Origin: Maribacter algarum (ex Zhang et al. 2020)
Lineage (GTDB): Bacteria > Bacteroidota > Bacteroidia > Flavobacteriales > Flavobacteriaceae
Length of the DNA: 64,000 nt
Assembly: GCF_005885635.1 (NCBI RefSeq)
Contig: NZ_VATY01000006.1
Span: 62,001 to 126,000 of the forward strand
Direction: 5' to 3'
The notes under the pieces are model-generated. The model was given only the letters and a program-made list of their open reading frames with translations. It did not search any database and was not told where the DNA came from. The position numbers were made by a program, and so were the translations under genes. Below are positions 8,636-57,204 of the stretch, one piece after another (position 1 is the first letter of the stretch; the number at the start of each line of letters is the position of its first letter).

Positions 8636-8680
8636 TAGTAGCGGGGACTGGACTCGAACCAGCGACCTTCGGGTTATGAG
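8636..8680 (-). repeat. attL: 45-bp direct repeat of tRNA-fMet 3' end
   Basis: These 45 bp are identical to 57129-57173 and consist of the anticodon-to-3' part of an initiator tRNA gene (minus strand). The identity ends on both sides with different bases (T versus C on the left, TTT versus CCC on the right). Beyond 8680 there is no D-arm or 5' acceptor strand, so this copy is a tRNA fragment, as expected for one end of an element integrated in a tRNA gene. Confidence 0.92.
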
Positions 8681-42218: not shown

Positions 42219-45200
42219 TTATTCAATAAACTCCAATGCTACTTTCTTTGCTTCTCTAAAGTTAAAAGGTGTTGATTTTGAGCTAATATATGCACCTTTA
42301 GAATCATCAATTAGTAAATTAATAAAGAACAAATCCGATTTACTTTTCTCAAGTGATTTTTTAATATCCAATAACACTTTCTGTACTTTCTTAAAATCAG
42401 TTTCCCCTGAAGATAGATTCATTATGAGGCTTCTATAAAATTCTTTATAATAACTAGATTCAAACTCGTCAAGTTCTTCATTGTATATCAAATAATAAAT
42501 ATTAAATAAATCTTTAAAAGGTTTTACTCCTTTATAATTAGAAAACTTAATGGAATGCATTGGATAAGGTTTGTTAGCAGCTAAACCCTCAATCATATAT
42601 TTATAAGCCATAACGTGGTTTTGTTCTATTAAAATTGCGAACGCATCAGTTCTAAACCGTTCTTTTTTGTTTTCCAAATATTGAAGAGCCTTTTGAGTGC
42701 CAAATTCCTTTTCAAAATCAAGTTTAAGCATTAGGTGTATAGAAGCCCAATAGATATAACTTTCGTCATCAACACATAATTCTAATAAAATCTCTTTATC
42801 GTTGGCCTTGATTACATATTCTTCAAGACTAGTCCTTTCATTAAAAAAAGACTCCCCTGTTAAAAGATACTTTCGAATACTTTGATAAGAGTCTTTTAAA
42901 TTATATTTCAATGCGTATTCAAAATGCTTGATTTTTGATAAGCCTAAAAGCTTGCTATCATTTATATTATCAACAATTTGTTTATCAAACAATTCATCAT
43001 TACCAATCAGCTCTTTTAGATAGTTAAAGCTATCATCCAATACACCACTTTTATCCATCTCATAAAATTCGATACTTTTCAATAAAAAATCTTGCGGCAA
43101 TTTAAATCCAAATACTTTTTGAAAATAAAATATCACGTCAACCTTCTTATAATTGTTTTTTATGAAGTGAAATGAGGTTGGGCCTGAAGATTTTGCAATA
43201 GCATCAAAATCAGTATTTTCTGCTGATGAAAGAGACCAATCATAGATAAAATTTTTCTGTTTATCAGAAATTATAAGCTTTCTACCATTATTCTGGTATT
43301 TTTCTATTGTCTTTCTAATTCTATCAACAATATTGAAGTTATCCCTCAAAATGATTTCCTTAACCTCTTCAAAAGATAAAACACTTTCATTTCGAGAATA
43401 GGAAATATTATCTAGAATACTTAGTGAGACATCAATTTCATTTCCATGTCCATTTTGGTCATACCAATCTCTTCTTAGTTCATTTAGTCTTGCTCTGGTA
43501 AGTCTATTTTCGTTGAGTTTGAAAATTCTTTCTATATTTTTGATAAGTCTTTTTTTGTCAAAAAGGATATCAAAATTATCTTGAGTATGTTGTTTGTATT
43601 CTTCTTGATATTGAACAAACTGTTCTTCTGTAACAACTGGTTCTTTAAATTTAACACCTCTATCTTCCATTAAATTATTAAACATGACGGCTAGTTTTCT
43701 TTTACCTGCATTGCCAATGTTATTGCGATAATACTCAATTTCTTGATGGGATATGTTTTTTTTCAATAATAGATTAACTAGGTCCGAGATATTATCTTCT
43801 TGAATAAATTGTGATATAAAATATCTACTGTCTCCGGGTTCAGTACTATTTATTAAATAATCTATAGCATCTTTTTCTTTGTTACTAGCAATAATTATTT
43901 TTTTAACAATAGAATCATGTCTTAAGAAACGGTAATTGTCCTTTATCCTTGAAAGTAGATTAATTAAAAAACTTTGCTCGTCTTTAATGAAGTTTACACA
44001 TTTATCAAGTAATCCTGGTTCAAAATCATTTGAATAGGCTGGCCTTATTTCATTATTAAAATAGCAAGATATTATATCGATAAAATTGTTAGAATCTTTG
44101 AGACGTAAAATAAGTTTGTTTAAGACAAACCTATTACCTCTTAGAACTTCGTCAGGAACAACTCTTTCTTTTAAATTGTTAATCAACAGATACTCATGTT
44201 TTATGAATTCATAATACTTATCAATATCAGTTTTTTCAGAAATAAGATATAACAAGCTGTTATTCAATTGCTTATGTGTTTCTTTTTTAAAAAGATTATA
44301 AATGTCCGTCATTAATGATTCATCATCGGAGACCAAGTTGTGCTTTTGTATAATTCGGATAATTTCAGATTTCGCACTCATAGGGAAATCTTCTAATTTC
44401 AGATGTCTCAAAAGAAATAACTTTAGCTTTCCTCGGTCAAAAGAAGATTCTGAAAAGAAGTTCAGCAATTTCAAAGCTGAGAATAAAACTCTCTCATGAT
44501 AAATTGGATAGGTGGATATTTTATCTAATAAGTAATCAACATTTTCCTTGAAATCTCCAAAATCGGCTATCTCACTTACTTCAAAGGCTCTATTTGTACT
44601 AATCCATAATGTTTTTTTAATACATTCTTCCTCGAAATATTCTTGAAAAGCTCTAATTCTAACTTCTTTAGATAGTCTATTGGAATCAGATTTAAATAAT
44701 AGCTCTATTTGATTTGCCTTAATCCAATTCAATAGCTCCTCATAATCTGAATCATTGACATCCATAATATCAAGTAAAAAGGTGAGAGAATTAAATAATG
44801 AAGGATGAATAAAATTTGTCTCTTCAATTCTAATAAAATCGAGTATCTCAGTAAAATCCTTATCTACTAATGATTTTGCAACAAAATATTCCTGTATTTG
44901 TCTATGTATGAATCCCCAATAATTAGAATCTTCATTCTTAATGATAAAAGGGTTTTCGATAAAGTTGTCATATTCATCCCCAATTGCACTGTAAAGTTCC
45001 TCATCTGTCGTATAATTCTTTTGCATCAACTCATTAATCAATGAAAGCATCTTTAATAGCTTAATTGATTTTGGTTTGTTAAGAACTGTCCTTTTAATAA
45101 CTTTAGACTTATGATTATCTAAAGCTTTGGACACATATAATTCCCAAATTTGAGATATATTCTGTGGCAACTTACCGTTATCGCCATAGTACTCAGCGAA

Positions 45201-45785
45201 TAGGTTAAGAAAAAAAGGAGTATCAATATTCTCGAAGAACTTCTCCTCTAAATTCTTTATACCAAACTTTTTTTCTAAGATTGACCTAGCTTGCCTAATA
45301 TTTATGGATTTTAATATAAAAGGTTGAAAATCTGTTATTTGAGCTAAATACTTACTATAAATATTTGTTCTACAACTCACTACATATTTGATACTTCTAT
45401 TTTTATTCTTTGAAATAAAATTTTCGAACCCAGATATGAAATCTTGAATGTCCGCAATTTCATCAAGCCCATCAAGTATAAAGATAACCTGAGGAAATAT
45501 TATCCAATCATCGTTGTTTATTAGTTCTTCAAAAGAAATGTTCTTTCTATAATATTTTAAATTGATTAAAAATGGTATAATACCTGTGCCTTCTTTTTCT
45601 TTCCAAAGCAAGTCAAAAAGCACGTTTAATTCAGTAGTTTTACCTACACCAGGATTTCCAAGGAGAATTATTTTATCAAAAGACATGATAGCCTTCCTCA
45701 AAGTAATATCGTTCTCATTATCATTGTAAGAATCAATATCGGTACCGCTATATTTGGTTATATGTCTTTCTTCGTAAAACTCCAT
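42219..45785 (-). CDS. NACHT-family STAND NTPase with long C-terminal helical region
   Basis: The 1188-residue protein begins with only ~38 residues before the NTPase: Walker A GNPGVGKTT (43-51), Walker B IFILDGLDE (101-109) in the NACHT form, and a sensor-like VVSCRT (135-140). After a winged-helix-like region (to about 320) the remaining ~850 residues look helical and repeat-rich (HEAT/ARM-like), suited to ligand sensing. No enzymatic effector is fused. The ATG directly abuts the stop of the phosphoesterase gene, so that enzyme is the likely partner. NACHT/STAND proteins act as intracellular sensors that oligomerise on a trigger, several in phage defence. The stretch is markedly AT-rich. 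Confidence 0.88.
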   Translation of the reverse strand: MEFYEERHITKYSGTDIDSYNDNENDITLRKAIMSFDKIILLGNPGVGKTTELNVLFDLLWKEKEGTGIIPFLINLKYYRKNISFEELINNDDWIIFPQVIFILDGLDEIADIQDFISGFENFISKNKNRSIKYVVSCRTNIYSKYLAQITDFQPFILKSINIRQARSILEKKFGIKNLEEKFFENIDTPFFLNLFAEYYGDNGKLPQNISQIWELYVSKALDNHKSKVIKRTVLNKPKSIKLLKMLSLINELMQKNYTTDEELYSAIGDEYDNFIENPFIIKNEDSNYWGFIHRQIQEYFVAKSLVDKDFTEILDFIRIEETNFIHPSLFNSLTFLLDIMDVNDSDYEELLNWIKANQIELLFKSDSNRLSKEVRIRAFQEYFEEECIKKTLWISTNRAFEVSEIADFGDFKENVDYLLDKISTYPIYHERVLFSALKLLNFFSESSFDRGKLKLFLLRHLKLEDFPMSAKSEIIRIIQKHNLVSDDESLMTDIYNLFKKETHKQLNNSLLYLISEKTDIDKYYEFIKHEYLLINNLKERVVPDEVLRGNRFVLNKLILRLKDSNNFIDIISCYFNNEIRPAYSNDFEPGLLDKCVNFIKDEQSFLINLLSRIKDNYRFLRHDSIVKKIIIASNKEKDAIDYLINSTEPGDSRYFISQFIQEDNISDLVNLLLKKNISHQEIEYYRNNIGNAGKRKLAVMFNNLMEDRGVKFKEPVVTEEQFVQYQEEYKQHTQDNFDILFDKKRLIKNIERIFKLNENRLTRARLNELRRDWYDQNGHGNEIDVSLSILDNISYSRNESVLSFEEVKEIILRDNFNIVDRIRKTIEKYQNNGRKLIISDKQKNFIYDWSLSSAENTDFDAIAKSSGPTSFHFIKNNYKKVDVIFYFQKVFGFKLPQDFLLKSIEFYEMDKSGVLDDSFNYLKELIGNDELFDKQIVDNINDSKLLGLSKIKHFEYALKYNLKDSYQSIRKYLLTGESFFNERTSLEEYVIKANDKEILLELCVDDESYIYWASIHLMLKLDFEKEFGTQKALQYLENKKERFRTDAFAILIEQNHVMAYKYMIEGLAANKPYPMHSIKFSNYKGVKPFKDLFNIYYLIYNEELDEFESSYYKEFYRSLIMNLSSGETDFKKVQKVLLDIKKSLEKSKSDLFFINLLIDDSKGAYISSKSTPFNFREAKKVALEFIE

Positions 45786-46898
45786 CTAGTCTCGTTTAAA
45801 ATCATCTACATTAAGGCCCTTAATTAAATTAGATTCACTCTTCTTACCTGGAAATTCATAACCATTTCCCCCAAAAGGCAAATTGTTGTCAATTCCTTTA
45901 GGGGGAGCTGAAATCGTATCGGGAACAAATTGTGGTGCTTCAATATTATATTTTCTATGGTGAATCTGGCGTATCCTATTTGACAATAAATCAATATCAA
46001 TAATTTGATAACCTGGTTGGAATTTTGATTCAATTTCATCGGGCTTATTCAATGCAGCTCTTCCTCGAAAACCGTAACAGCTTCCTACGGGGTTAAAAAT
46101 TTTTTCCGATTTCACACTATGATGATGACCAAATAAAAACATATCTACATCCTTGTTAATCAAGAATTTCTTTACTTCTTCTTGTTCAGTAAAATCATCA
46201 ATCGAGTGATGAAAAAGACAAACGGTTAAATCTAGATTATCATCGAGAACTTGAAGTTTTTGAATTGCCCAATAAAACTGTTTTGCGCCGAAATAATGAT
46301 TATTCAGATTCTTTTCTTCTAATCTACAGGTTGAGCACCTCCAAGAATCGTTGATCAAAATAAAACCCACCTTCTTATCTGAATCATTGTGATAAATATA
46401 TATGGATTCATTATTTGTACAGTCATAATTTACTGTATCCTTATGAAATTTCTCTTCAAACTTTTTGAATGGCTTTATTCGTGAATTCGCTGAATTAAAA
46501 TTGAATTGGTTTGATTCTAAATGGTCTTTTATGGTATCCTTATTTACATTTTGTTTTAATGATTTTTCATCAACCCAGAGAATGTCGTTCTCGTCAATAT
46601 CATGATTGCCCGGAACAAATAGAAAATTCTTATTAGATAGACCAAGTTTCGCGGAAATAGGCTTGATAAAAACTTCTTCAAAAACTTCATATGGAGAACT
46701 GAAACCAGTAAATTCTGACATCTGCATTAATGAGTGACCTCCTCTATCAACCAAATCCCCCGTTATTACAATCAAATCAATTTTATCTGGTGAATTAAAC
46801 TCTATAAGGTCATCTATCAAGGCGTCACGATAATTATCATGAAACTCATCGAAGTTGTTTTCAGAAAGGTGTATGTCGGATAGGTGTACTATTCTCAT
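45786..46898 (-). CDS. Calcineurin-like metallophosphoesterase, NACHT partner
   Basis: The 370-residue protein has all the metal-binding motifs of the calcineurin superfamily: DIH (D8, H10), GDLVDRGG (D48), GNHD (97-100), an H at about 230 (LFHH) and GHHH (257-260). An inserted pair of cysteines (WRCSTCRLEE, about 187-195) is unusual. No signal peptide, so it is cytosolic. The C-terminal ~60 residues after the catalytic domain (about 305-370) are Pro/Asn/Gly-rich and may bind the NTPase. Substrates cannot be read from the motifs; nucleic acid, cyclic nucleotide or phosphoprotein are possible. It is the first gene of a two-gene operon with zero spacing to the NACHT gene. Confidence 0.88.
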   Translation of the reverse strand: MRIVHLSDIHLSENNFDEFHDNYRDALIDDLIEFNSPDKIDLIVITGDLVDRGGHSLMQMSEFTGFSSPYEVFEEVFIKPISAKLGLSNKNFLFVPGNHDIDENDILWVDEKSLKQNVNKDTIKDHLESNQFNFNSANSRIKPFKKFEEKFHKDTVNYDCTNNESIYIYHNDSDKKVGFILINDSWRCSTCRLEEKNLNNHYFGAKQFYWAIQKLQVLDDNLDLTVCLFHHSIDDFTEQEEVKKFLINKDVDMFLFGHHHSVKSEKIFNPVGSCYGFRGRAALNKPDEIESKFQPGYQIIDIDLLSNRIRQIHHRKYNIEAPQFVPDTISAPPKGIDNNLPFGGNGYEFPGKKSESNLIKGLNVDDFKRD

Positions 46899-48474: not shown

Positions 48475-49170
48475 GTGGGTTTATTCGAAGCGGGGAACAA
48501 TAAATTAAAGGTTAAGATTTGTGGTGTGACCCGTCCACAAGATATAATTTCTTGTAGCAATCTTGGTATAGATGCAGTTGGTTTCTTGCTTGGAGATAGA
48601 TTTGGAAGATATCCATCTGATAAACTGAGCTTAATGGAGGTAGCTAATCTGATTAATTTGGTTCCAAATGATATGACTTCGGTGGTCTTGATTAAATCAG
48701 TTGATAAGGAAGAAATTATTAGTATAATAGAAAAGACAGAGCCAAATGCAATTCAGCTTCAAAATCCATTAATTTCTTCTGAAACATTAAAATTTTTATT
48801 CCACACTTATACCAAAGTAGAATTTATTAAAACAATTAAAATACAGGAAACAGATAATGTTAATTCCATTCTTTTAAATGCACTTCCATTTACCAAAATG
48901 GTAGATGCGTTTTTGCTTGATTCCGCAAGAGGAGGATCAGGAAAAACCCATAATTGGAATATTAGTAAAGAAGTGGTTGGGTATTTACATTCTTTAAAAA
49001 TCCCAGTAGTACTTGCAGGCGGCTTAACAACGAATAATGTTCTCCATTCCGTTAATCTTGTTAAACCAAACATGATTGATTTAATGACCGGGGTAAGCCT
49101 AGAAAGGGGAATCAAAAACATAGACGAGATAAAAAAACTCCAGAACATACTAAAATTAAATGAATTATGA
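48475..49170 (+). CDS. TrpF-like phosphoribosylanthranilate isomerase homologue
   Basis: This starts with GTG at 48475 (in-frame TAA at 48460; no upstream ATG) and encodes 231 residues. The TrpF landmarks are present: VKICGVTRPQD with catalytic Cys16, LLDSARGGSGKTHNW with catalytic Asp149, the phosphate-binding VVLAGGLTTNNV, and DLMTGVSLERGIKN replacing the usual SGVE..PGVKD. It is thus a TIM-barrel that may still catalyse an Amadori rearrangement of an N-phosphoribosyl substrate. No other trp gene lies nearby; instead a phosphoribosyltransferase-like gene follows after 191 bp. A duplicated tryptophan enzyme or a repurposed one are both possible; context favours the latter. Confidence 0.82.
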   Translation: MGLFEAGNNKLKVKICGVTRPQDIISCSNLGIDAVGFLLGDRFGRYPSDKLSLMEVANLINLVPNDMTSVVLIKSVDKEEIISIIEKTEPNAIQLQNPLISSETLKFLFHTYTKVEFIKTIKIQETDNVNSILLNALPFTKMVDAFLLDSARGGSGKTHNWNISKEVVGYLHSLKIPVVLAGGLTTNNVLHSVNLVKPNMIDLMTGVSLERGIKNIDEIKKLQNILKLNEL

Positions 49171-49361
49171 AATTTACTGTCTATTTCAAAAAAGCGTAGT
49201 AGCGGCATTGTCAAATTTGATGCAAGAAATCATGAACAAGTTTTAAATTAAAAAGGTTAAGATTTCCAGTAGAATTAAATAGTTGGGTTAACAATTTTAA
49301 AAATTCCTAACTCTTAAAAGAGGGAAAAAAATTAACTTGTTAAAATTTTCAATTAAATCGA

Positions 49362-50495
49362 ATGACACCACATCAGGAATTCATAGGAAATAATTTAAAA
49401 CAAATTGGCCAAATTGTTCGAAGCTGGGGCTTTCAAAAAAAAACTGATTTATATAATTCTAGGATAAGTGAGGTTATTATTTGGTTTGATAATTTTAAAC
49501 CATCGGAATTAAAGGATGCCCTTTTAATACTCTCTAAAATACAATACATTCAGTATCATAAAATCAAAGGCCTAATTGAAATTGTTTCAAACGAAATTGA
49601 CCATATATTTGGGAAGGACTTTGACAATGTACTTTTCTTTCCATTAGGCTCTTTTTCAGCCTCGAGCGGAAGTATGTATTTATATGAGTACTATAAAACG
49701 CTTGGATTAACGTCTAAAAACTTTAAACAAGACAGTTTTATCAGTTATTTAGATACTGATATTTCAATTGTTTTTATTGACGATATTATCGGATCGGGAC
49801 GTCAAGCAACAAAATTTTTTAACGAATTTCTTATCAATAAAAAAGCAAAATGCTATTACTTCACCCTTTTTGGTTTTGAATCTGGGCTCGAATACTTGAA
49901 TCTTAATGCTAATTTTGAACTAGTACTTTCAGCAAAAATTCTGTCTGATGAAGAAATGGCTTTTGGAAGTAATTCTTATGTTTTTAAAGATCTAAAAACA
50001 AGAAATAGGTTAGAGAACTTATGTGAAAAATATGGCTCGATATTGTTTCCGAAACATCCATTGGGATATGACAATTCGCAATCTCTACTTGTTTTTCCTC
50101 ACAATGCTCCTAATAACACATTACCAATTATCTGGGCTAGTACCTTTAATGAAAAACAAAAAGGAGTAATATGGAGGCCCATATGGGAGCGGAAAAAATT
50201 CAAGGAAAAAAAACCTAGGAAATCAGCTACTAATAGTGACGTAGGAGAAATTGTTACCAAATATAAAGACGTACCAACAGAAACCAATACTTCTAAATCA
50301 GAATCAAAAAGTGAGCTTCGGAGAAAGGAAATTGCATATAAGGAATTGATAGAGTTGGAAGAGCTTGTTTCAGAATGGAAGCAAAAATTATCGATTTCCC
50401 AAATTCCAAGTGAAAAAAAACATTGTAAACTCGAAATTCAAAGATTAAATCAAATGATATTAGAAGTCGAACAAAGAATTGGAAAATATAACTAA
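49362..50495 (+). CDS. Phosphoribosyltransferase-like protein (PRTase-CE-like) with C-terminal helical module
   Basis: The 377-residue protein has a PRTase fold core: VFIDDIIGSGRQATKFF contains the acidic PRPP-binding motif (D140, D141, then GSGR). A conserved distal block, HPLGYDNSQSLLVFPHNAPN followed by NTLPIIWAS (about 229-260), follows. This combination matches, from memory, the PRTase-CE group proposed in prokaryotic conflict systems (Burroughs and Aravind). After a basic, Ser/Thr/Lys-rich linker (about 280-320), the last ~50 residues form a helical module that recurs at the N-terminus of the next protein. The stop codon directly abuts the next ATG. Predicted to be cytosolic. Confidence 0.75.
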   Translation: MTPHQEFIGNNLKQIGQIVRSWGFQKKTDLYNSRISEVIIWFDNFKPSELKDALLILSKIQYIQYHKIKGLIEIVSNEIDHIFGKDFDNVLFFPLGSFSASSGSMYLYEYYKTLGLTSKNFKQDSFISYLDTDISIVFIDDIIGSGRQATKFFNEFLINKKAKCYYFTLFGFESGLEYLNLNANFELVLSAKILSDEEMAFGSNSYVFKDLKTRNRLENLCEKYGSILFPKHPLGYDNSQSLLVFPHNAPNNTLPIIWASTFNEKQKGVIWRPIWERKKFKEKKPRKSATNSDVGEIVTKYKDVPTETNTSKSESKSELRRKEIAYKELIELEELVSEWKQKLSISQIPSEKKHCKLEIQRLNQMILEVEQRIGKYN

Positions 50496-51839
50496 ATGGA
50501 TTATTGGGAAAGAAGAAAAGCGAGTATCGAACATGAATTGGATGATTTAAGCATTCACCTAAAGGATTGGAGGGTTGAGCTTAGTATCGCGAATACCCCG
50601 GATAAGAAAAAGCTTTGCAAAAGGAAAATTAAAGATTTGGAAGATGAGTTGGAAAAATATGAAAATGAACTAAATAGAATCATCAAAAAAATCTATCAAG
50701 CAAAAGTAAATTACTCTAAAAAGGAGGATTTTCAACCAAATGAAATATCAACTGATATGATTTTTGACTTGTTAAAGGAGAAATCGAAGACGCAAAATCA
50801 GGAAAGAATAGAAAATGAAAAAAAAATCAATACACCATATATGTATGGTAAGGTGGTCAATCGCGATTTAAGGGATAATGAAGGTAGCCAATATACTATC
50901 AAAGGGGAAGATGAAAATACATATTACTGCAATTACTCGCACATTCTTACGGAAGGTTTTCGAACATTAGAGATAGGAGATAAAATCCGGTTTGTTTCTG
51001 ATTTAAAGTCAGATAAAAATTTGGCAACATATGTTGTTAAAATCGAAAAAGACTTAATTTTCATTGAAGATTACCCTCCCGAATTAACCAGAAAAACTAA
51101 AAAACATTATGACAGTATATCAGATAATTATGACGAATTATGGACTTATTCCAAGGATTTTGTCACTGAAATTACTAAAAACATAATTTCTCTTTTAGAA
51201 ATTAAGGAAACTGATGTTATTGTGGATTTCGGATGTGGAACAGGCATATATTCGAAAGCAATAAGGCAGCAAGTTAGCCTTAAAAAACCTATTATTTGCA
51301 CGGACATATCTGAAAAAATGTTATCTAAAATTAATGATGGACCGTCTTATACTTTATTTCATAAAGGTGCCATTCAATTTTCAGAATTAAAACTCCAATA
51401 TGATAAAGTTTTTATAAAGGAAATGATTCATCATGTAAAAAGAGGTAGGCAAAGGCTGTATGATAACATTTATAATAATTTAAATAAAAGTGGCATTTTT
51501 ATCATCTTACTCTTACCTCCCAAAATTGAATACCCTCTTTTTACAGAAGCAATCAAATATTACGAAGAGAATCAACCTCATTATTCAGAAATAGAAAAAG
51601 GAATGAAAACATCTGGGTTTCTTACGGAAGTAAGTTTCGTTGAGTATCCATTAGAAATTGAAAAAGGAAAATATTTTGCTATGGTTAGAAATAGATATAT
51701 GTCACTGTTATCAGAATTTACTGATTCGGAAATAGAAAATGGAATTAATGAAATGGAAAGTAAATATAAGAATGAAAACATTCTTAAGTTCAATGATATA
51801 TTTGTTGTAGTCAAAGGAAGAAAAACGAATAATGAGTAA
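50496..51839 (+). CDS. Helical module + OB/cold-shock-like domain + SAM methyltransferase
   Basis: The 447-residue protein has three parts. Residues 1-70 are a charged helical module matching the C-terminus of the PRTase-like protein (LKDWRVELSIANTPDKKKLC against VSEWKQKLSISQIPSEKKHC). Residues ~105-180 resemble a cold-shock/OB fold (GKVVNRDLRDNEGSQYTI, YYCNYSHILTEGF, LEIGDKIRFVS), suggesting nucleic-acid binding. Residues ~195-447 are a class I methyltransferase with VDFGCGTGIY (243-252) and CTDISEKML. Target is unknown; RNA or a nucleotide is plausible given the OB fold. It overlaps the following NACHT-FGE gene by 8 bp, so the last three genes are tightly coupled. Confidence 0.82.
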   Translation: MDYWERRKASIEHELDDLSIHLKDWRVELSIANTPDKKKLCKRKIKDLEDELEKYENELNRIIKKIYQAKVNYSKKEDFQPNEISTDMIFDLLKEKSKTQNQERIENEKKINTPYMYGKVVNRDLRDNEGSQYTIKGEDENTYYCNYSHILTEGFRTLEIGDKIRFVSDLKSDKNLATYVVKIEKDLIFIEDYPPELTRKTKKHYDSISDNYDELWTYSKDFVTEITKNIISLLEIKETDVIVDFGCGTGIYSKAIRQQVSLKKPIICTDISEKMLSKINDGPSYTLFHKGAIQFSELKLQYDKVFIKEMIHHVKRGRQRLYDNIYNNLNKSGIFIILLLPPKIEYPLFTEAIKYYEENQPHYSEIEKGMKTSGFLTEVSFVEYPLEIEKGKYFAMVRNRYMSLLSEFTDSEIENGINEMESKYKNENILKFNDIFVVVKGRKTNNE

Positions 51840-54570
51840 ACCAAACCACCTATTACAATCTTTGCAAATTGAGTTAGCCAAGCATAAAAAAATAGAAGAT
51901 GTTTTAGGGCAATCCTTTCAACGACCTATTTCTAGTATAAAGGATGGTTATCCGGAGTTCGCAGTAGGTTGGATCAATGATGTTCTGAATAAACTATTCG
52001 ACTATTGGACATTTGAGAATAACCTTGAACTACCTAATGATTTTCAATTAGAAAACGCATCGGTTTTAATCAAGAAATACCCATCTTTTGAGTCAATAAT
52101 TAAATCTTTCGAAAAAACTCAAAAGAAGATACTCGAAAAAAAGGGGGATTGGGGTAATATTGATGTTGATGGAGCGATTGATGTATTTTCTGAATTTATC
52201 GAAATTTTGAAATGGATTTCTAAATCTGAGAATAATCTTATAGAATCTGATAGTTTTAGACTAAATGAAAACGTAACTAAAAAAACACTTTTTCTTGTAG
52301 AATTTTTTGAAATTTTGAAATTTCGGCTATTTAAATTCATCGAATTTAATCAAGAATCAGCCTACCTACTTTTTGAAAAGAAGACTGGTCTCAAACACGA
52401 GTATATTGAAGTTGTTATTTCTGATAATTTACGTGTATTAGAAGGAATTCAAACTAGTAAACAGAGTATTTTAGAAACTACTTACCCATTAAAAACAAGT
52501 TTTATCTTGACGGATAATTATTCTATTGCTCAACAAATTCCTAAGGACGTGTTCACCCTAGATTCCTTTGTCAGCAAGTATTTAGACTATAATCGTTATT
52601 TAGAAAATTTAAGAATAATAGACTATAACTTAGGTGATGAAAAGTTTGTTGAACTTTCTGGCGAACTATTATCATATATCACTGACAAACAAGAATTTAA
52701 AATTGTATCTACATCGGATATTAATCTCATACTTGAAGAATTTTTAAATTCCGAAAGAGGTAATTTATTTGTCTTATCTAAACCTGGGGGAGGAAAAAGC
52801 TTCATTTGTAGATCCATATTAAAAAAAATCAGTTCAAATCATAATGATAGCAAATATTCTATTTATTTCGATGTTTCTTTAATGACATTGGGCGAAAAAA
52901 TAGAAGATTTCATAATTCGTAATACATCAAACTATTTTGACCTGCAGGCAAATGAAATATTTGATGTTATTTATTTTTTAAATAACTACGGCAGACTTAT
53001 TCTAATTTTTGACGGGTTAGACGAGGTTTTTGATAAATTTGATATTAAAGACTTTATTAGTGTTTTTGGAGAAATATCTAAATTATTTACTCATAAGTCT
53101 AAGATTATAATTACTTCGAGATTATCCTTTTTAATGTCCTCGAAACATATTTCAGAATTATTAAACAAAGAGGCTTTAATCTCGGATAAAATTGCTACTG
53201 AGCTAAACTCTGTCGGGCTTGATCCTCTTCAACTTCCCAATTTTGAAATATTAAAATTGAATGATATTCAATTAAAGGAAATCGAAGTTAGCAAGAAACA
53301 TTTAAAACTGTCACGGGAAATTCCGAAAACTAATGATATCTCGATTACACCATTGGAATATCGTCTGCTTGAAAATATACCAATCAATCAGTCCTTAACC
53401 TCATTTAGCTTTAAAAATAACAAGTTTTCAAAATCAAAACTGATATACAACTACTTAATTACACTTGCCGATGATTTGGTAAAATCCAACAGTAAGACAT
53501 TTCAGGATTTCGTTAATTATTTTAGTCAATCATATCAAAAGAATGTTTTGCATTTTGAACTTCTTCAATTGTTCACTTTTTTTGGGCAAGACCTGTTTAT
53601 TGATAATATTCCGTCATTGAAAAATATGGCTTTTCGGGAGTTGTTTGTCGAATTTGGAGAGAATAAAATTAAATTTAAGCATAAAAATTATTTAGAATTT
53701 ATGTTTGCCCTTGCCTATGTAAATAATCCGGTTTTAATTGATGACTGTATATCCATTTCAGACGAAATAAGAATCTACATTAACGAAATGAATAATGATA
53801 GATCCTATTTTAATATTTTTAATAAATATCATCCTAGTGAATTATTGGTGGACAAAGGTTACTATGTTACAGGAGAGTATGACAATACAAAAATTAGAAA
53901 ATTAGATAAAAATCTGATTTTTGATGAATATTTTGTTACCGTTAAAGAATATAACGAGTTTTTATCAGCGGTAAAGAAATTTGATATCAAGGAATTTGAA
54001 CATAGTTTACAACCCACAGGATTTTCACACACACCACAATATACTCGGCTAAAGGAAAAGGATTATTTTTTTGATGAGAAATTCTTGGATTATCCCGCTA
54101 TTTGCCTTTCCTACTGGAGTGCTTATGCTTATGCTAGTTTTATGGGGAAGAGATTGCCAACCTCTTTTGAATGGGAATGCGCAACTAGAGGAAAATATGG
54201 CAACTTATTTTCCTGGGGCAATTCTGTAGAAATATCCGCGGCAAATTCTGCAGATTATTGGGCTGATGAATTATTGGTTGTATATGATAAATGGAAAGAC
54301 CATTTTGATAAATCAGGTAATGTTAGAGGCGGGAATCCTGTGGGAAAAGACACTTTCGAAAAAAACAAATCGGATTTTGGTATTCGTCACATGTGCGGAA
54401 ATATTTGGGAATATTCTTCAACGGTAAGTGAGGACTACAGCAAGGTAGTAATTTGCGGTGGATCTTTTGATAATCCATTACGTGCTATAAAAGGATCTTC
54501 TAAAGGTATTGCCAAAATCTTGACATTTAGCAATGCAGTTGGATTCAGATGCTGTAAAGAATTACATTAG
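51832..54570 (+). CDS. NACHT NTPase fused to FGE-sulfatase-type (C-type lectin fold) domain
   Basis: The 912-residue protein has a ~300-residue helical N-terminal part, a NACHT NTPase with Walker A KPGGGKSF (317-324) and Walker B LILIFDGLDEV (about 386-396), a helical winged region (about 480-660), and an FGE-sulfatase-like domain (about 675-912). The last shows EYFVTVKEYNEFL, FPAICLS-like spacing (YPAICLSYWSAYAYASFMG), RLPTSFEWECATRG, HMCGNIWEYS, ICGGSFDNP and NAVGFRCC. The cysteines expected of active formylglycine-generating enzymes downstream of GGS are not visible, so the domain is probably a ligand-binding C-type-lectin-fold module. Such fusions occur among STAND sensors and diversity-generating retroelement targets; no reverse transcriptase is present here. 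Confidence 0.88.
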   Translation: MSKPNHLLQSLQIELAKHKKIEDVLGQSFQRPISSIKDGYPEFAVGWINDVLNKLFDYWTFENNLELPNDFQLENASVLIKKYPSFESIIKSFEKTQKKILEKKGDWGNIDVDGAIDVFSEFIEILKWISKSENNLIESDSFRLNENVTKKTLFLVEFFEILKFRLFKFIEFNQESAYLLFEKKTGLKHEYIEVVISDNLRVLEGIQTSKQSILETTYPLKTSFILTDNYSIAQQIPKDVFTLDSFVSKYLDYNRYLENLRIIDYNLGDEKFVELSGELLSYITDKQEFKIVSTSDINLILEEFLNSERGNLFVLSKPGGGKSFICRSILKKISSNHNDSKYSIYFDVSLMTLGEKIEDFIIRNTSNYFDLQANEIFDVIYFLNNYGRLILIFDGLDEVFDKFDIKDFISVFGEISKLFTHKSKIIITSRLSFLMSSKHISELLNKEALISDKIATELNSVGLDPLQLPNFEILKLNDIQLKEIEVSKKHLKLSREIPKTNDISITPLEYRLLENIPINQSLTSFSFKNNKFSKSKLIYNYLITLADDLVKSNSKTFQDFVNYFSQSYQKNVLHFELLQLFTFFGQDLFIDNIPSLKNMAFRELFVEFGENKIKFKHKNYLEFMFALAYVNNPVLIDDCISISDEIRIYINEMNNDRSYFNIFNKYHPSELLVDKGYYVTGEYDNTKIRKLDKNLIFDEYFVTVKEYNEFLSAVKKFDIKEFEHSLQPTGFSHTPQYTRLKEKDYFFDEKFLDYPAICLSYWSAYAYASFMGKRLPTSFEWECATRGKYGNLFSWGNSVEISAANSADYWADELLVVYDKWKDHFDKSGNVRGGNPVGKDTFEKNKSDFGIRHMCGNIWEYSSTVSEDYSKVVICGGSFDNPLRAIKGSSKGIAKILTFSNAVGFRCCKELH

Positions 54571-55670: not shown

Positions 55671-57020
55671 TTACCCTTTTTGTTGTTCTTGGAATAAATG
55701 GGAATAGTCCTGTGGCAATACCGCATCGATATCCCTAAGATAGGCTTCCAGAGCTTTTAATGTTGTATGGCCTGTAATGAGCATTAATTTGCTTTTGGCC
55801 TCCAAAGGAGTCGAGGTCTTTGCCAATTCTCGATATAAAATTGTGGTATGGGTATGTCTGAAACTATAGAGACCATAATTCTTTCCAAGTCCAAAATTGT
55901 CTTTTACCTTTTTAAAGCGACCGGAAAAGTAATTTCTCTTATCGGTTTCTGAAGTATCCCAAACCCCTCCTATTTCATATGGGGTGAACAAATCTGAATT
56001 TTTGTCCATCTTAACAAGGTCAGGTAGTTTTGCCAACAATATTTCTGGAATGATCTTGATCTTTACAGGTTTGTTCTTGGCACGAACATATATTTTTCTG
56101 TCCAAAACATCGATGTCCCCGATTTTCAAACGGCAGACCTCTATGGGTCTTAAAAAATTATAGGAAATGAACTGGATGAACAGCTTCAGTAGGGGGTCGT
56201 GTTCATCCAAATAACTGTTTATTCCTACTATTTGTTGCGGGGTGAAAGTCTTGTTTCGTTCAGGGACTGTTTTAAGTACATTTATCTTGTGTATAAAGTT
56301 CTCCCTGATGATTTCGTTGTCTTCCAAAGTGGTGAACAATGAACTCAGGTTTGTTCTTGCATTGTTCCTACTGCGGGCTGAGGTATTCTCTAAAACTATG
56401 TTCAGGTATTCAACAACTGCTTTTTTGGTGACATCTTCTATTTGGATAATGCCCTTGGTATTCAACCATTTTTGAAAACGGAGTATGGTGCTTTTGTATT
56501 TGGGGTATGAGTTTTGGTTGAGTGTTCTTCTTTTGATTTTAAGTCCTAGTTCAAAGGCTTCCGCCACGGAAGTTGTTACCTCTTTTGTTGCTGTTTCGAC
56601 AGTTTTTGTTGCTTCTTTTTGCTCCTCTTCACTTGATTTATCGTTTTTGGGAGATGATATAACAGTTTTTGTTGTTTTGGCAACAATTTGGTTGTTGTGG
56701 TCATTCTTTTTATTGAAGAACTTATCCATGAGTTCGGTATTGTCAGAGTATGGACTGAACCCTGCATCGAGCAATATTAGAAGATTACGCTGTAGAACTT
56801 TTAAAAACCCGAATCTATCCCTTTTGTTATGGAATCGATTGGCACCTCCCTTTATGGGCGATTGTCTTTTAAGTTTCCCTGTTTTGGGATCGCGAAAGGA
56901 GTAATAGAGATACCAATCCTTTTTCAAAGCATTTCTCTGGTCGGCTTTGGAGAGTTTTGACCATTGCTTTGGATCAATTCCCCCAGTGTAGATTTTAGGC
57001 TCTGAATAGTTCGATTTCAT
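55671..57020 (-). CDS. Tyrosine recombinase (integrase) of the element
   Basis: The ATG at 57020 (MKSNYSEPKIYTGG) is chosen. An in-frame start at 57098 would run through the paired CGTATAC sites and give an untypical N-terminus. The 449-residue protein has a SAM-like core-binding domain (about 165-260) after a Lys/Glu/Thr-rich linker. The catalytic domain carries the first Arg in NFLRPIEVCRL, a box with GLYSFRHTHTT (Tyr where His is usual, then Arg), a His in LITGHTTLKALEAY, and the nucleophile Tyr in that last motif. It adjoins tRNA-fMet and would catalyse integration and excision at the 45-bp repeats. Confidence 0.93.
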   Translation of the reverse strand: MKSNYSEPKIYTGGIDPKQWSKLSKADQRNALKKDWYLYYSFRDPKTGKLKRQSPIKGGANRFHNKRDRFGFLKVLQRNLLILLDAGFSPYSDNTELMDKFFNKKNDHNNQIVAKTTKTVISSPKNDKSSEEEQKEATKTVETATKEVTTSVAEAFELGLKIKRRTLNQNSYPKYKSTILRFQKWLNTKGIIQIEDVTKKAVVEYLNIVLENTSARSRNNARTNLSSLFTTLEDNEIIRENFIHKINVLKTVPERNKTFTPQQIVGINSYLDEHDPLLKLFIQFISYNFLRPIEVCRLKIGDIDVLDRKIYVRAKNKPVKIKIIPEILLAKLPDLVKMDKNSDLFTPYEIGGVWDTSETDKRNYFSGRFKKVKDNFGLGKNYGLYSFRHTHTTILYRELAKTSTPLEAKSKLMLITGHTTLKALEAYLRDIDAVLPQDYSHLFQEQQKG

Positions 57021-57027
57021 GTTGAAA

Positions 57028-57048
57028 CCGTATACGTTTTCGTATACG
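57028..57048. promoter_or_regulatory. Paired CGTATAC site upstream of the integrase
   Basis: Two CGTATAC motifs within 21 bp lie 8 bp upstream of the integrase ATG, matching 18 of 21 positions of the left-end site. A TACTTTTA sequence on the minus strand (57054-57061) could be the -7 element, which would put the site over the transcript start and allow autoregulation (inference). Confidence 0.5.
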
Positions 57049-57077
57049 TTTAGTAAAAGTACGGAAATAGAAGGCAT

Positions 57078-57108
57078 AAAAAAACGGTTTGTACGCATAC
57101 AAACCGTT
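57078..57108 (-). terminator. Element-borne terminator downstream of tRNA-fMet
   Basis: Perfect 11-bp arms (57083-57093 and 57098-57108) with a CGCA loop are followed on the minus strand by a U-run (A 57078-57084). It lies 24 bp past the tRNA 3' end and would stop tRNA transcripts before the integrase gene. Confidence 0.75.

Positions 57109-57128: not shown

Positions 57129-57204
<76 letters not shown>

What the first reader, a model, noticed from the sequence alone, without database searches (positions are those of the whole stretch)
48475..54570. TrpF-like / PRTase-like / OB-methyltransferase / NACHT-FGE cluster
Four co-directional genes, the last three abutting or overlapping, combine base/nucleotide chemistry with a STAND sensor. 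A phosphoribosyltransferase followed by a TrpF-like Amadori isomerase copies the consecutive TrpD-TrpF steps, so the pair could make or destroy an N-phosphoribosyl compound, and a methyltransferase could modify it or RNA. No other trp gene is present. This is the best candidate in the window for an undescribed defence or signalling system.
Basis: inference. Interest (0 to 1): 0.9.

Follow-up and report, generated by a model that had tools for sequence, protein, structure and literature searches.

The report
Immune-sensor operon with exchangeable effectors
A gene cluster on a mobile island of a flavobacterium looks like one version of an immune operon that, in two bacterial phyla, keeps the same sensor and methyltransferase but carries different predicted killing proteins.

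Summary
The four genes are real and at the stated coordinates. The last three form a version of a conserved module: a SAM methyltransferase (MT), a NACHT/STAND protein ending in an FGE (lectin-like) domain, and a cold-shock-type OB domain. In 30 of 46 public-genome loci found with the MT profile, all 30 actinomycetes, the order is MT, STAND-FGE, OB, CorA-like membrane protein. One other Bacteroidota genome has TIR-OB, MT, STAND-FGE beside a TIR-STING gene and near type I restriction genes. In the window the OB is fused to the MT, and a PRTase-CE protein stands where TIR or CorA stands elsewhere; the PRTase tail and MT head share a similar coiled-coil-like stretch. I read this as a defence system whose effector here is the PRTase. 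TrpF-like is a genuine non-canonical PRAI homologue, absent from the other copies examined; probably cargo or an accessory. The cluster lies on a 48.5-kb tRNA-Met island with 45-bp direct repeats. The paper searches listed below did not show this combination described. Function is inferred, not tested.

The parts
8636..8680 (.). att-like 45-bp direct repeat (left end of the island)
   Evidence: identical to 57129-57173, the 3' part of tRNA-Met
48475..49170 (+). TrpF-like (PRAI) protein, 231 aa; probably accessory or cargo
   Evidence: PF00697 5.5e-20; Cys, Asp, GGSGK and AGG motifs kept; outside the clade of trp-operon rows, on a long branch
49362..50495 (+). PRTase-CE protein, 377 aa; predicted effector (PRTase domain about 49380-50234)
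   Evidence: PF24390 3.9e-42, PADLOC PRTase_III-A 8.7e-47; PRPP-loop motif IDDIIGSG
50319..50486 (+). C-terminal coiled-coil-like stretch of the PRTase (coil called by eye), similar to the MT N-terminus
   Evidence: 56-aa ungapped match, score 82; 0 of 1000 shuffles reach it (max 66); best non-self match among 1681 proteins, next 57
50496..51839 (+). coiled-coil-like head + cold-shock-type OB + class I SAM methyltransferase, 447 aa
50511..50678 (+). N-terminal coiled-coil-like stretch of the MT protein
50832..51056 (+). cold-shock-type OB domain; separate gene in actinomycetes, fused to TIR in G146
   Evidence: 51% identity over 92 aa to the TIR-OB protein; profile hit 2.7e-30 (the profile includes the window row)
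51099..51824 (+). methyltransferase domain
   Evidence: 51% identity to a cyanobacterial lone MT, 48% to G146, 33-38% to most actinomycetes; profile hit 2.6e-97 (includes the window row)
51832..54570 (+). NACHT/STAND protein with FGE C-terminus, 912 aa; predicted sensor-switch
   Evidence: 39% identity over 911 columns to G146, 27-30% to the 11 actinomycete rows aligned
52780..53130 (+). NACHT domain core
   Evidence: PF05729 residues 317-433
53908..54555 (+). FGE/C-type-lectin-fold domain without the Cys pair of active FGE (pair recalled)
   Evidence: PF03781 residues 693-908; VICGG(S/A)(Y/F)DNP in 12 of 12 aligned sequences
55671..57098 (-). tyrosine-type integrase of the island
   Evidence: PF00589 3.7e-8, PF13495 4.9e-7
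57129..57173 (.). att-like 45-bp direct repeat (right end, in tRNA-Met 57131-57204)

Best explanation
PRTase, OB-MT and NACHT-FGE form one member of an immune operon, unnamed as far as I searched, that moves between bacteria. SHOWN BY SEQUENCE: a three-part core (class I SAM methyltransferase, NACHT-FGE protein, cold-shock-type OB domain) is shared by Actinomycetota and Bacteroidota; beside it stands a CorA-like protein in actinomycetes, a TIR domain fused to the OB in G146, and a PRTase-CE protein here. INFERRED: the FGE domain senses an invader-derived ligand and releases the NACHT switch; the STAND-MT-OB assembly then activates the attached effector. In the window the attachment would be the coiled-coil-like stretch shared by the PRTase tail and the MT head, in place of the direct TIR-OB fusion. 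The PRTase then kills or arrests the cell by a PRPP-dependent reaction on a nucleotide or base. The MT probably acts on a small molecule or primes the complex; its substrate is unknown. TrpF-like is probably cargo, or an accessory that acts on the PRTase product.
For: Ordered MT, STAND, OB, CorA-like in 30 of 46 loci, plus one (L141) with the first three and then the contig end. TIR-OB, MT, NACHT-FGE in G146; TIR_2 1.1e-13, neighbouring TIR-STING 1.4e-31 and 7.6e-28; type I RM genes within 6 kb. CorA-like: PADLOC CorA profiles 5.7e-9 and 3.4e-8 on two sequences 37% identical; two C-terminal hydrophobic peaks above 1.4 in 6 of 8 sequences, one in 2. PRTase family in defence settings: PADLOC PRTase_III-A 8.7e-47; an RT next to PRTase and a 104-aa gene in three genomes; a C5 DNA methylase or HsdM nearby in two others. 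Shared coiled-coil-like stretch. Island with integrase and 45-bp repeats. In the 30 loci (28 of the full-module genome loci, L141 and a plasmid locus) no neighbour outside the module recurs in more than 11, as expected of a moving unit; my ORF caller is crude in G+C-rich DNA, so neighbours may be missed.
Against: Only one copy with the PRTase is known, so its membership rests on position, gene abutment and the shared stretch, whose coiled-coil nature was called by eye. 21 of 23 other strong PRTase-CE places were read and none has the core. No orthologue of the MT or NACHT-FGE in 148 near relatives: non-own NACHT-FGE matches lie in its C-terminal part (listed rows within residues 639-891), and non-own MT matches are weak, best 5.8e-8. 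The MT family also occurs alone: 7 of 46 loci. CorA-like is a moderate match: Pfam and NCBIfam show no CorA, the model is poor (pLDDT 53.8) and Foldseek found nothing at E<=1e-3. No STAND-FGE copy in viral contigs. No phage assay. Streptomyces copies could have a non-defence role.
Confidence: 0.68

Rival explanations
1. The TrpF-like protein is an integral second enzyme: PRTase makes an N-phosphoribosyl compound and TrpF-like turns it by Amadori rearrangement into a dead-end ketose, so that the reaction is irreversible and drains PRPP or a nucleobase. (Not exclusive of the best explanation.)
For: Adjacent, same strand, no + strand terminator-like site listed between them (weak scan). TrpF-like keeps the KICG Cys, LLD Asp, RY Arg, GGSGK and AGG motifs (catalytic roles recalled). 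Outside the clade of trp-operon rows, and the genome has its own TrpF. TrpF-like directly before a uracil PRTase on a Corynebacterium plasmid.
Against: 191-nt gap. By HMM the only TrpF hit among the 46 genome loci, the G146 contig, four plasmid loci, one viral-collection contig and the window is the window's own; none in the 21 other PRTase-CE loci by blastp. Its place in the tree is unsure (branch 2.76).
Confidence: 0.17
2. The MT makes, consumes or modifies a SAM-derived signal that gates the effectors, in the manner of type III CRISPR SAM-AMP and CorA. (Not exclusive.)
For: The MT keeps its glycine-rich SAM motif in the core-copy rows of the 18-row alignment; CorA-like beside it in 30 of 46 loci. 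CRISPR-associated CorA binds SAM-AMP (PMC10600005, passages). The MT resembles small-molecule methyltransferases.
Against: I noticed no nucleotidyltransferase or phosphodiesterase partner in the module (not searched for by profile). TIR is fused to OB, and the PRTase shares a stretch with the MT, which points to physical coupling rather than a diffusible signal.
Confidence: 0.1
3. The MT-STAND-OB module is a regulatory or metabolic system of actinomycetes (development, specialised metabolism) and not defence; the window copy is a transferred relative.
For: Most copies are in Streptomyces; MT relatives lie downstream of an aminotransferase-like gene in L100 and, by eye, L147.
Against: TIR and PRTase-CE in the effector place, defence genes around G146, few conserved flanks, mobile island in the window.
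Confidence: 0.12
4. Chance neighbours: MT-STAND is one unit, and PRTase and TrpF-like are unrelated island cargo.
For: PRTase-CE occurs without the core in the 21 other places read; island cargo is mixed.
Against: PRTase stop and MT start abut, and the two proteins share a stretch that no other of 1681 proteins compared matches as well.
Confidence: 0.15

Closest known systems
STAND NTPase-FGS conflict systems (Kaur, Burroughs, Iyer, Aravind, eLife 2021, PMC8195603; section 7 read whole, other parts as passages; figures and source data not seen)
   Same: STAND/NACHT fused to an FGS/FGE lectin-fold domain; effectors and adaptor domains swapped between copies; TIR among the effectors
   Different: That section does not mention a SAM methyltransferase, a cold-shock OB partner, a CorA-like or a PRTase effector; its NTPases often carry N-terminal EADs or effectors, here the N-terminus is an unrecognised helical plus alpha/beta region; no RT among the nine proteins scanned here
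Type III-A retrons (PRTase effector; PLoS Biol 2025, PMC12548924, passages)
   Same: PRTase family (PADLOC PRTase_III-A is the best profile)
   Different: No RT or winged-helix gene among the proteins scanned around the cluster; the PRTase has a coiled-coil-like tail
Type III CRISPR SAM-AMP/CorA signalling (Nature 2023, PMC10600005, passages)
   Same: A CorA-like membrane protein beside a SAM-binding-type protein in the actinomycete relatives
   Different: No Cas10 or CRISPR noticed; no CorA-like hit in the window
Tryptophan biosynthesis TrpD-TrpF
   Same: A phosphoribosyltransferase next to a PRAI-family protein
   Different: PRTase-CE is not TrpD; the PRAI protein lies outside the clade of trp-operon rows; the genome's own trp operon is elsewhere
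bNACHT anti-phage proteins (PMC12169576, search listing only)
   Same: NACHT switch
   Different: Multi-gene module with MT and OB, and an FGE domain

Membership tests
STAND-FGS conflict systems | STAND NTPase domain | tested here: met
   PF05729 1.6e-6; P-loop G312, G314, K315 invariant in 12 of 12
STAND-FGS conflict systems | C-terminal FGS/FGE domain without FGE catalysis | tested here: met
   PF03781 5.1e-22; where active FGE has its Cys pair (recalled), VICGG(S/A)(Y/F)DNP in 12 of 12
STAND-FGS conflict systems | effectors exchanged between copies | tested here: met
   CorA-like, TIR-OB, PRTase; TIR and PRTase are each a single copy, and that these are effectors is inferred
STAND-FGS conflict systems | known EAD or effector domain at the STAND N-terminus | tested here: inconclusive
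   no Pfam hit there; AF2 pLDDT 64.7, Foldseek nothing at E<=1e-3
STAND-FGS conflict systems | protection against invaders | not testable with these tools
   needs phage assays
Type III-A retron | PRTase of the III-A family | tested here: met
   PDLC02934 8.7e-47
Type III-A retron | reverse transcriptase and winged-helix gene alongside | tested here: not met
   no RT or winged-helix hit among the nine proteins scanned at 42-57 kb
Tryptophan pathway TrpF | falls with trp-operon TrpF proteins | tested here: not met
   outside the 18-row set (97/98) that holds all eight rows labelled trp, long-branch caveat; 117.7 bits against a 215-bit equivalog cut-off
Tryptophan pathway TrpF | PRAI family and catalytic residues | tested here: met
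   PF00697; Cys and Asp motifs aligned (roles recalled)
CRISPR-associated CorA (for the actinomycete fourth gene) | CorA-type membrane C-terminus | tested here: inconclusive
   PADLOC hits 5.7e-9 and 3.4e-8, two hydrophobic peaks in 6 of 8; no Pfam or NCBIfam CorA hit; model poor, no fold match

The most novel reading that the evidence does not exclude
A STAND-controlled immune system in which the methyltransferase is the signalling enzyme: on sensing an invader through FGE, it makes or modifies a SAM-derived small molecule that gates interchangeable effectors (CorA-like channel, TIR, PRTase), a non-CRISPR counterpart of SAM-AMP signalling. In the window copy, the PRTase with the TrpF-like isomerase would form an irreversible two-step PRPP or base sink.
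Probability: 0.08. Interest if true: 0.93.

Novelty: new variant of a known kind. Interest (0 to 1): 0.72.

Why it matters
If true, it adds a multi-gene STAND immune operon, found in two phyla, with a methyltransferase and a cold-shock OB partner, and it ties three effector types (CorA-like, TIR, PRTase-CE) to one sensor core. That makes two open questions testable: what PRTase effectors do (they are also retron effectors), and why an immune sensor needs a small-molecule-type methyltransferase.

Tried and rejected
TrpD-TrpF pathway copy: rejected as the main reading (no recurrence in the copies read; separate trp operon; other PRTase type). RNA or DNA base methylation: disfavoured, the nearest solved relatives are mostly phosphoethanolamine and other small-molecule methyltransferases. 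PADLOC mad2 hits (2.7e-14 window, 1.2e-12 L103, 9.1e-18 G146) cover only part of the methyltransferase fold, so I did not file it under MADS. FGE as an active formylglycine enzyme: disfavoured, Cys pair lacking. DGR-diversified sensor: not tested; no RT among the nine scanned proteins. HEPN RNase at the STAND N-terminus: the 13 actinomycete rows of A5 carry RNRSTH, window and G146 do not; no profile hit, left open. STAND N-terminus and CorA-like folds: models too weak.

Searches that led nowhere: PRTase in genome contigs by single sequence; TrpF, STAND and OB in viral contigs; PRTase in phages; the MT head in plasmids; PRTase against solved structures; paper search 'PRTase-CE'.

NACHT-FGE profile (A3) searches: 2 of 395 Bacteroidota genomes (own and G146), 1 of 128 in the order of G146 (G146 itself), 1 of 397 in the own family (own). 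In some searches only 2 candidates a genome were scored in the rows shown, so copies may have been missed.

One of the 46 loci (L146) was matched by the OB part only.
Full report
OBSERVATION. The four genes exist as described: TrpF-like 48475-49170, PRTase-CE 49362-50495, OB-MT 50496-51839, NACHT-FGE 51832-54570, all on the + strand. The last three abut or overlap; TrpF-like stands 191 nt apart. The region is A+T-rich (GC 0.28-0.31 in the three 2-kb bins from 48 to 54 kb; 0.36-0.41 in most other bins).

SETTING. A 45-bp perfect direct repeat, 8636-8680 and 57129-57173, the second in tRNA-Met, flanks about 48.5 kb, with an integrase next to the tRNA. 13 of 14 genomes of the genus, the own one included, have the flanking symporter gene. 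I read 6 of the 12 others: all 6 have tRNA-Met beside the symporter, 5 of 6 the Era-like gene after it, and none shows a match (blastp 1e-10) to the window proteins of 30-57 kb. Proteins of 8.6-30 kb were not compared. One of the six (L208) ends just past the tRNA, so it says little. The cluster thus very probably lies on an integrative island.

TRPF-LIKE. The genome has an ordinary trp operon with TrpF elsewhere. The window copy keeps PRAI motifs but lies outside the 18-row set that holds all eight rows labelled trp in a 30-row tree, on a branch of length 2.76, so its exact place is unsure. Non-trp PRAI homologues are not unusual: several genomes in a draw of 198 carry two or three PRAI matches. 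One on a Corynebacterium plasmid directly precedes a uracil PRTase in a cluster with AMP-binding, tautomerase and pseudouridine-5'-phosphate glycosidase genes. Of the plasmid TrpF hits I looked at four settings; only that one has a PRTase next to it.

PRTASE. PRTase-CE with an intact PRPP-loop motif. 23 places besides the window were found at E<=1e-10 in 59 relatives and 395 phylum genomes; I read 21 of them (not G155, G442; G007 and G010 hold near-identical copies). None has TrpF-like, the MT or the NACHT-FGE protein by blastp at 1e-3 (the TrpF row is L032, the trp operon locus). Three have an RT next to the PRTase.

THE CORE MODULE. In 148 near relatives neither the NACHT-FGE nor the MT has an orthologue: non-own matches are to the C-terminal FGE part or weak methyltransferase-fold matches. 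Plasmid searches gave three Streptomyces and one Saccharopolyspora plasmid with the MT, one of them with MT and a full-length NACHT-FGE side by side. A profile-guided scan of the 84,980-species collection gave 46 loci, 45 with the MT and one (L146) matched through the OB. 1 (L141) has the first three and then the contig ends. 10 have the MT only: 7 lone (L101, L102, L119, L130, L132, L135, L136), L138 a fragment, L142 and L145 at contig edges. 5 are broken or partial (L121, L122, L139, L144, L146). PRTase profile hits: 0 of 46. TrpF profile hits: 0 of 46. The models include rows from some of these loci, so their E-values for those rows are not independent; order and adjacency are. The fourth gene matches PADLOC CorA profiles (5.7e-9, 3.4e-8) and has one or two hydrophobic C-terminal peaks; Pfam and NCBIfam do not call it CorA, its structure model was poor and gave no fold match.

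THE SECOND BACTEROIDOTA COPY. The NACHT-FGE profile found 2 of 395 Bacteroidota genomes: the window's own and G146. G146 has TIR-OB (272 aa), MT (247 aa, 48% identity) and NACHT-FGE (905 aa, 39% over the full length), tightly linked, with no PRTase or TrpF hit on its 27-kb contig. Next to TIR-OB lies a TIR-STING gene; on the other side a TrkA-N gene with a weak RyR match, and type I RM genes within 6 kb. Two more searches of 128 and 397 genomes found no further copy. Copies are rare in these draws; few candidates a genome were scored, so the counts are lower bounds.

COUPLING. The OB domain of the window MT is 51% identical over 92 aa to the OB fused to TIR in G146. I take this as a homologous coupling element. 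It was called a coiled coil by eye, no coil predictor was run, and coiled-coil bias is only partly controlled by these tests.

MECHANISM. Shown: gene content, order, domain families, different genes in the effector place. Inferred: FGE senses, NACHT switches, MT and OB form the adaptor, PRTase is the effector. The MT's nearest solved relatives are mostly phosphoethanolamine and other small-molecule methyltransferases; the OB's are cold-shock proteins (best E 3e-4; Apaf-1 rows near 0.02 look like chance). Why the core needs a methyltransferase is the main open point.

LITERATURE. Kaur et al. 2021 (PMC8195603; section 7 read whole, other passages; figures and source data not seen) describe STAND-FGS systems with exchanged effectors and adaptors; no methyltransferase, cold-shock OB, CorA or PRTase appears in that section. 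The 2020 paper (PMC7159879; passages) lists cold-shock OB domains and FGS among components of other conflict systems. PMC10907252 (passages) treats DGR-diversified STAND-FGE sensors. PMC13092281 (passages) mentions PRTase in a figure legend on validated defence systems; I did not see which. PMC12548924 (passages) calls PRTase the usual effector of type III retrons. Searches whose listings gave no description of this gene combination; two papers listed (PMC7824862, PMC5512222, the latter with 16 mentions of PRTase) were not opened. The library lacks most subscription papers, so 'not in print' is not shown.

VERDICT. A real, conserved, multi-gene module of the STAND-FGS kind, with a methyltransferase and an OB partner and, as I read it, exchangeable effectors; the window copy is its PRTase version on a mobile island. 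TrpF-like is the weakest member.

Noticed in passing
window 42219-46898 (-): A second STAND pair on the island: calcineurin-like phosphoesterase followed by a 1188-aa NACHT protein; the phosphoesterase matches PADLOC PDC-S60 at 1.3e-36.
   Followed up: no
window 8636-57173: 48.5-kb integrative island at tRNA-Met with 45-bp perfect repeats; cargo upstream of the defence genes includes pilus/secretion-like genes and a 2161-aa protein with RHS/YD-like repeats (by eye).
   Followed up: partly
L214 5764-7094: Corynebacterium aurimucosum plasmid pET44827: TrpF-like gene directly before a uracil PRTase, then AMP-binding, tautomerase and pseudouridine-5'-phosphate glycosidase genes: a TrpF-PRTase pair outside trp.
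   Followed up: partly
L182 5289-10911: TrpF-like protein sharing LLDS...GGSGKT and TGVS with the window copy, between a Cupin_8 protein and genes for an unknown 415-aa protein, a 2-hydroxyacid dehydrogenase, an unknown 369-aa protein and a P-loop kinase.
   Followed up: partly
L178-L181, L189: Extra PRAI homologues starting with an IQIAGV or IQVAGI motif, outside trp operons, in five genomes of one Bacteroidota family.
   Followed up: no
L101 10001-10741; L102 9992-10738: Cyanobacterial lone methyltransferases 51% and 42% identical to the window MT domain, with no STAND or OB hit in the locus.
   Followed up: no
L100 6804-9714; L147 5786-8735: Relatives of the MT two genes downstream of an aminotransferase-like gene, on a Saccharopolyspora plasmid and a viral-collection contig (Pfam tested for L100 only).
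   Followed up: no
STAND N-terminus of 13 actinomycete rows (A5): Actinomycete STAND proteins carry an RNRSTH (HEPN-like) motif that is not present in the window or G146.
   Followed up: no
G000:C1:45800-46618 and 1163374-1164102: Two more PRTase-CE proteins in the same genome, in other settings.
   Followed up: partly
L143 16172-17416 (-): A second CorA-like gene near a copy whose own CorA-like gene is broken.
   Followed up: no
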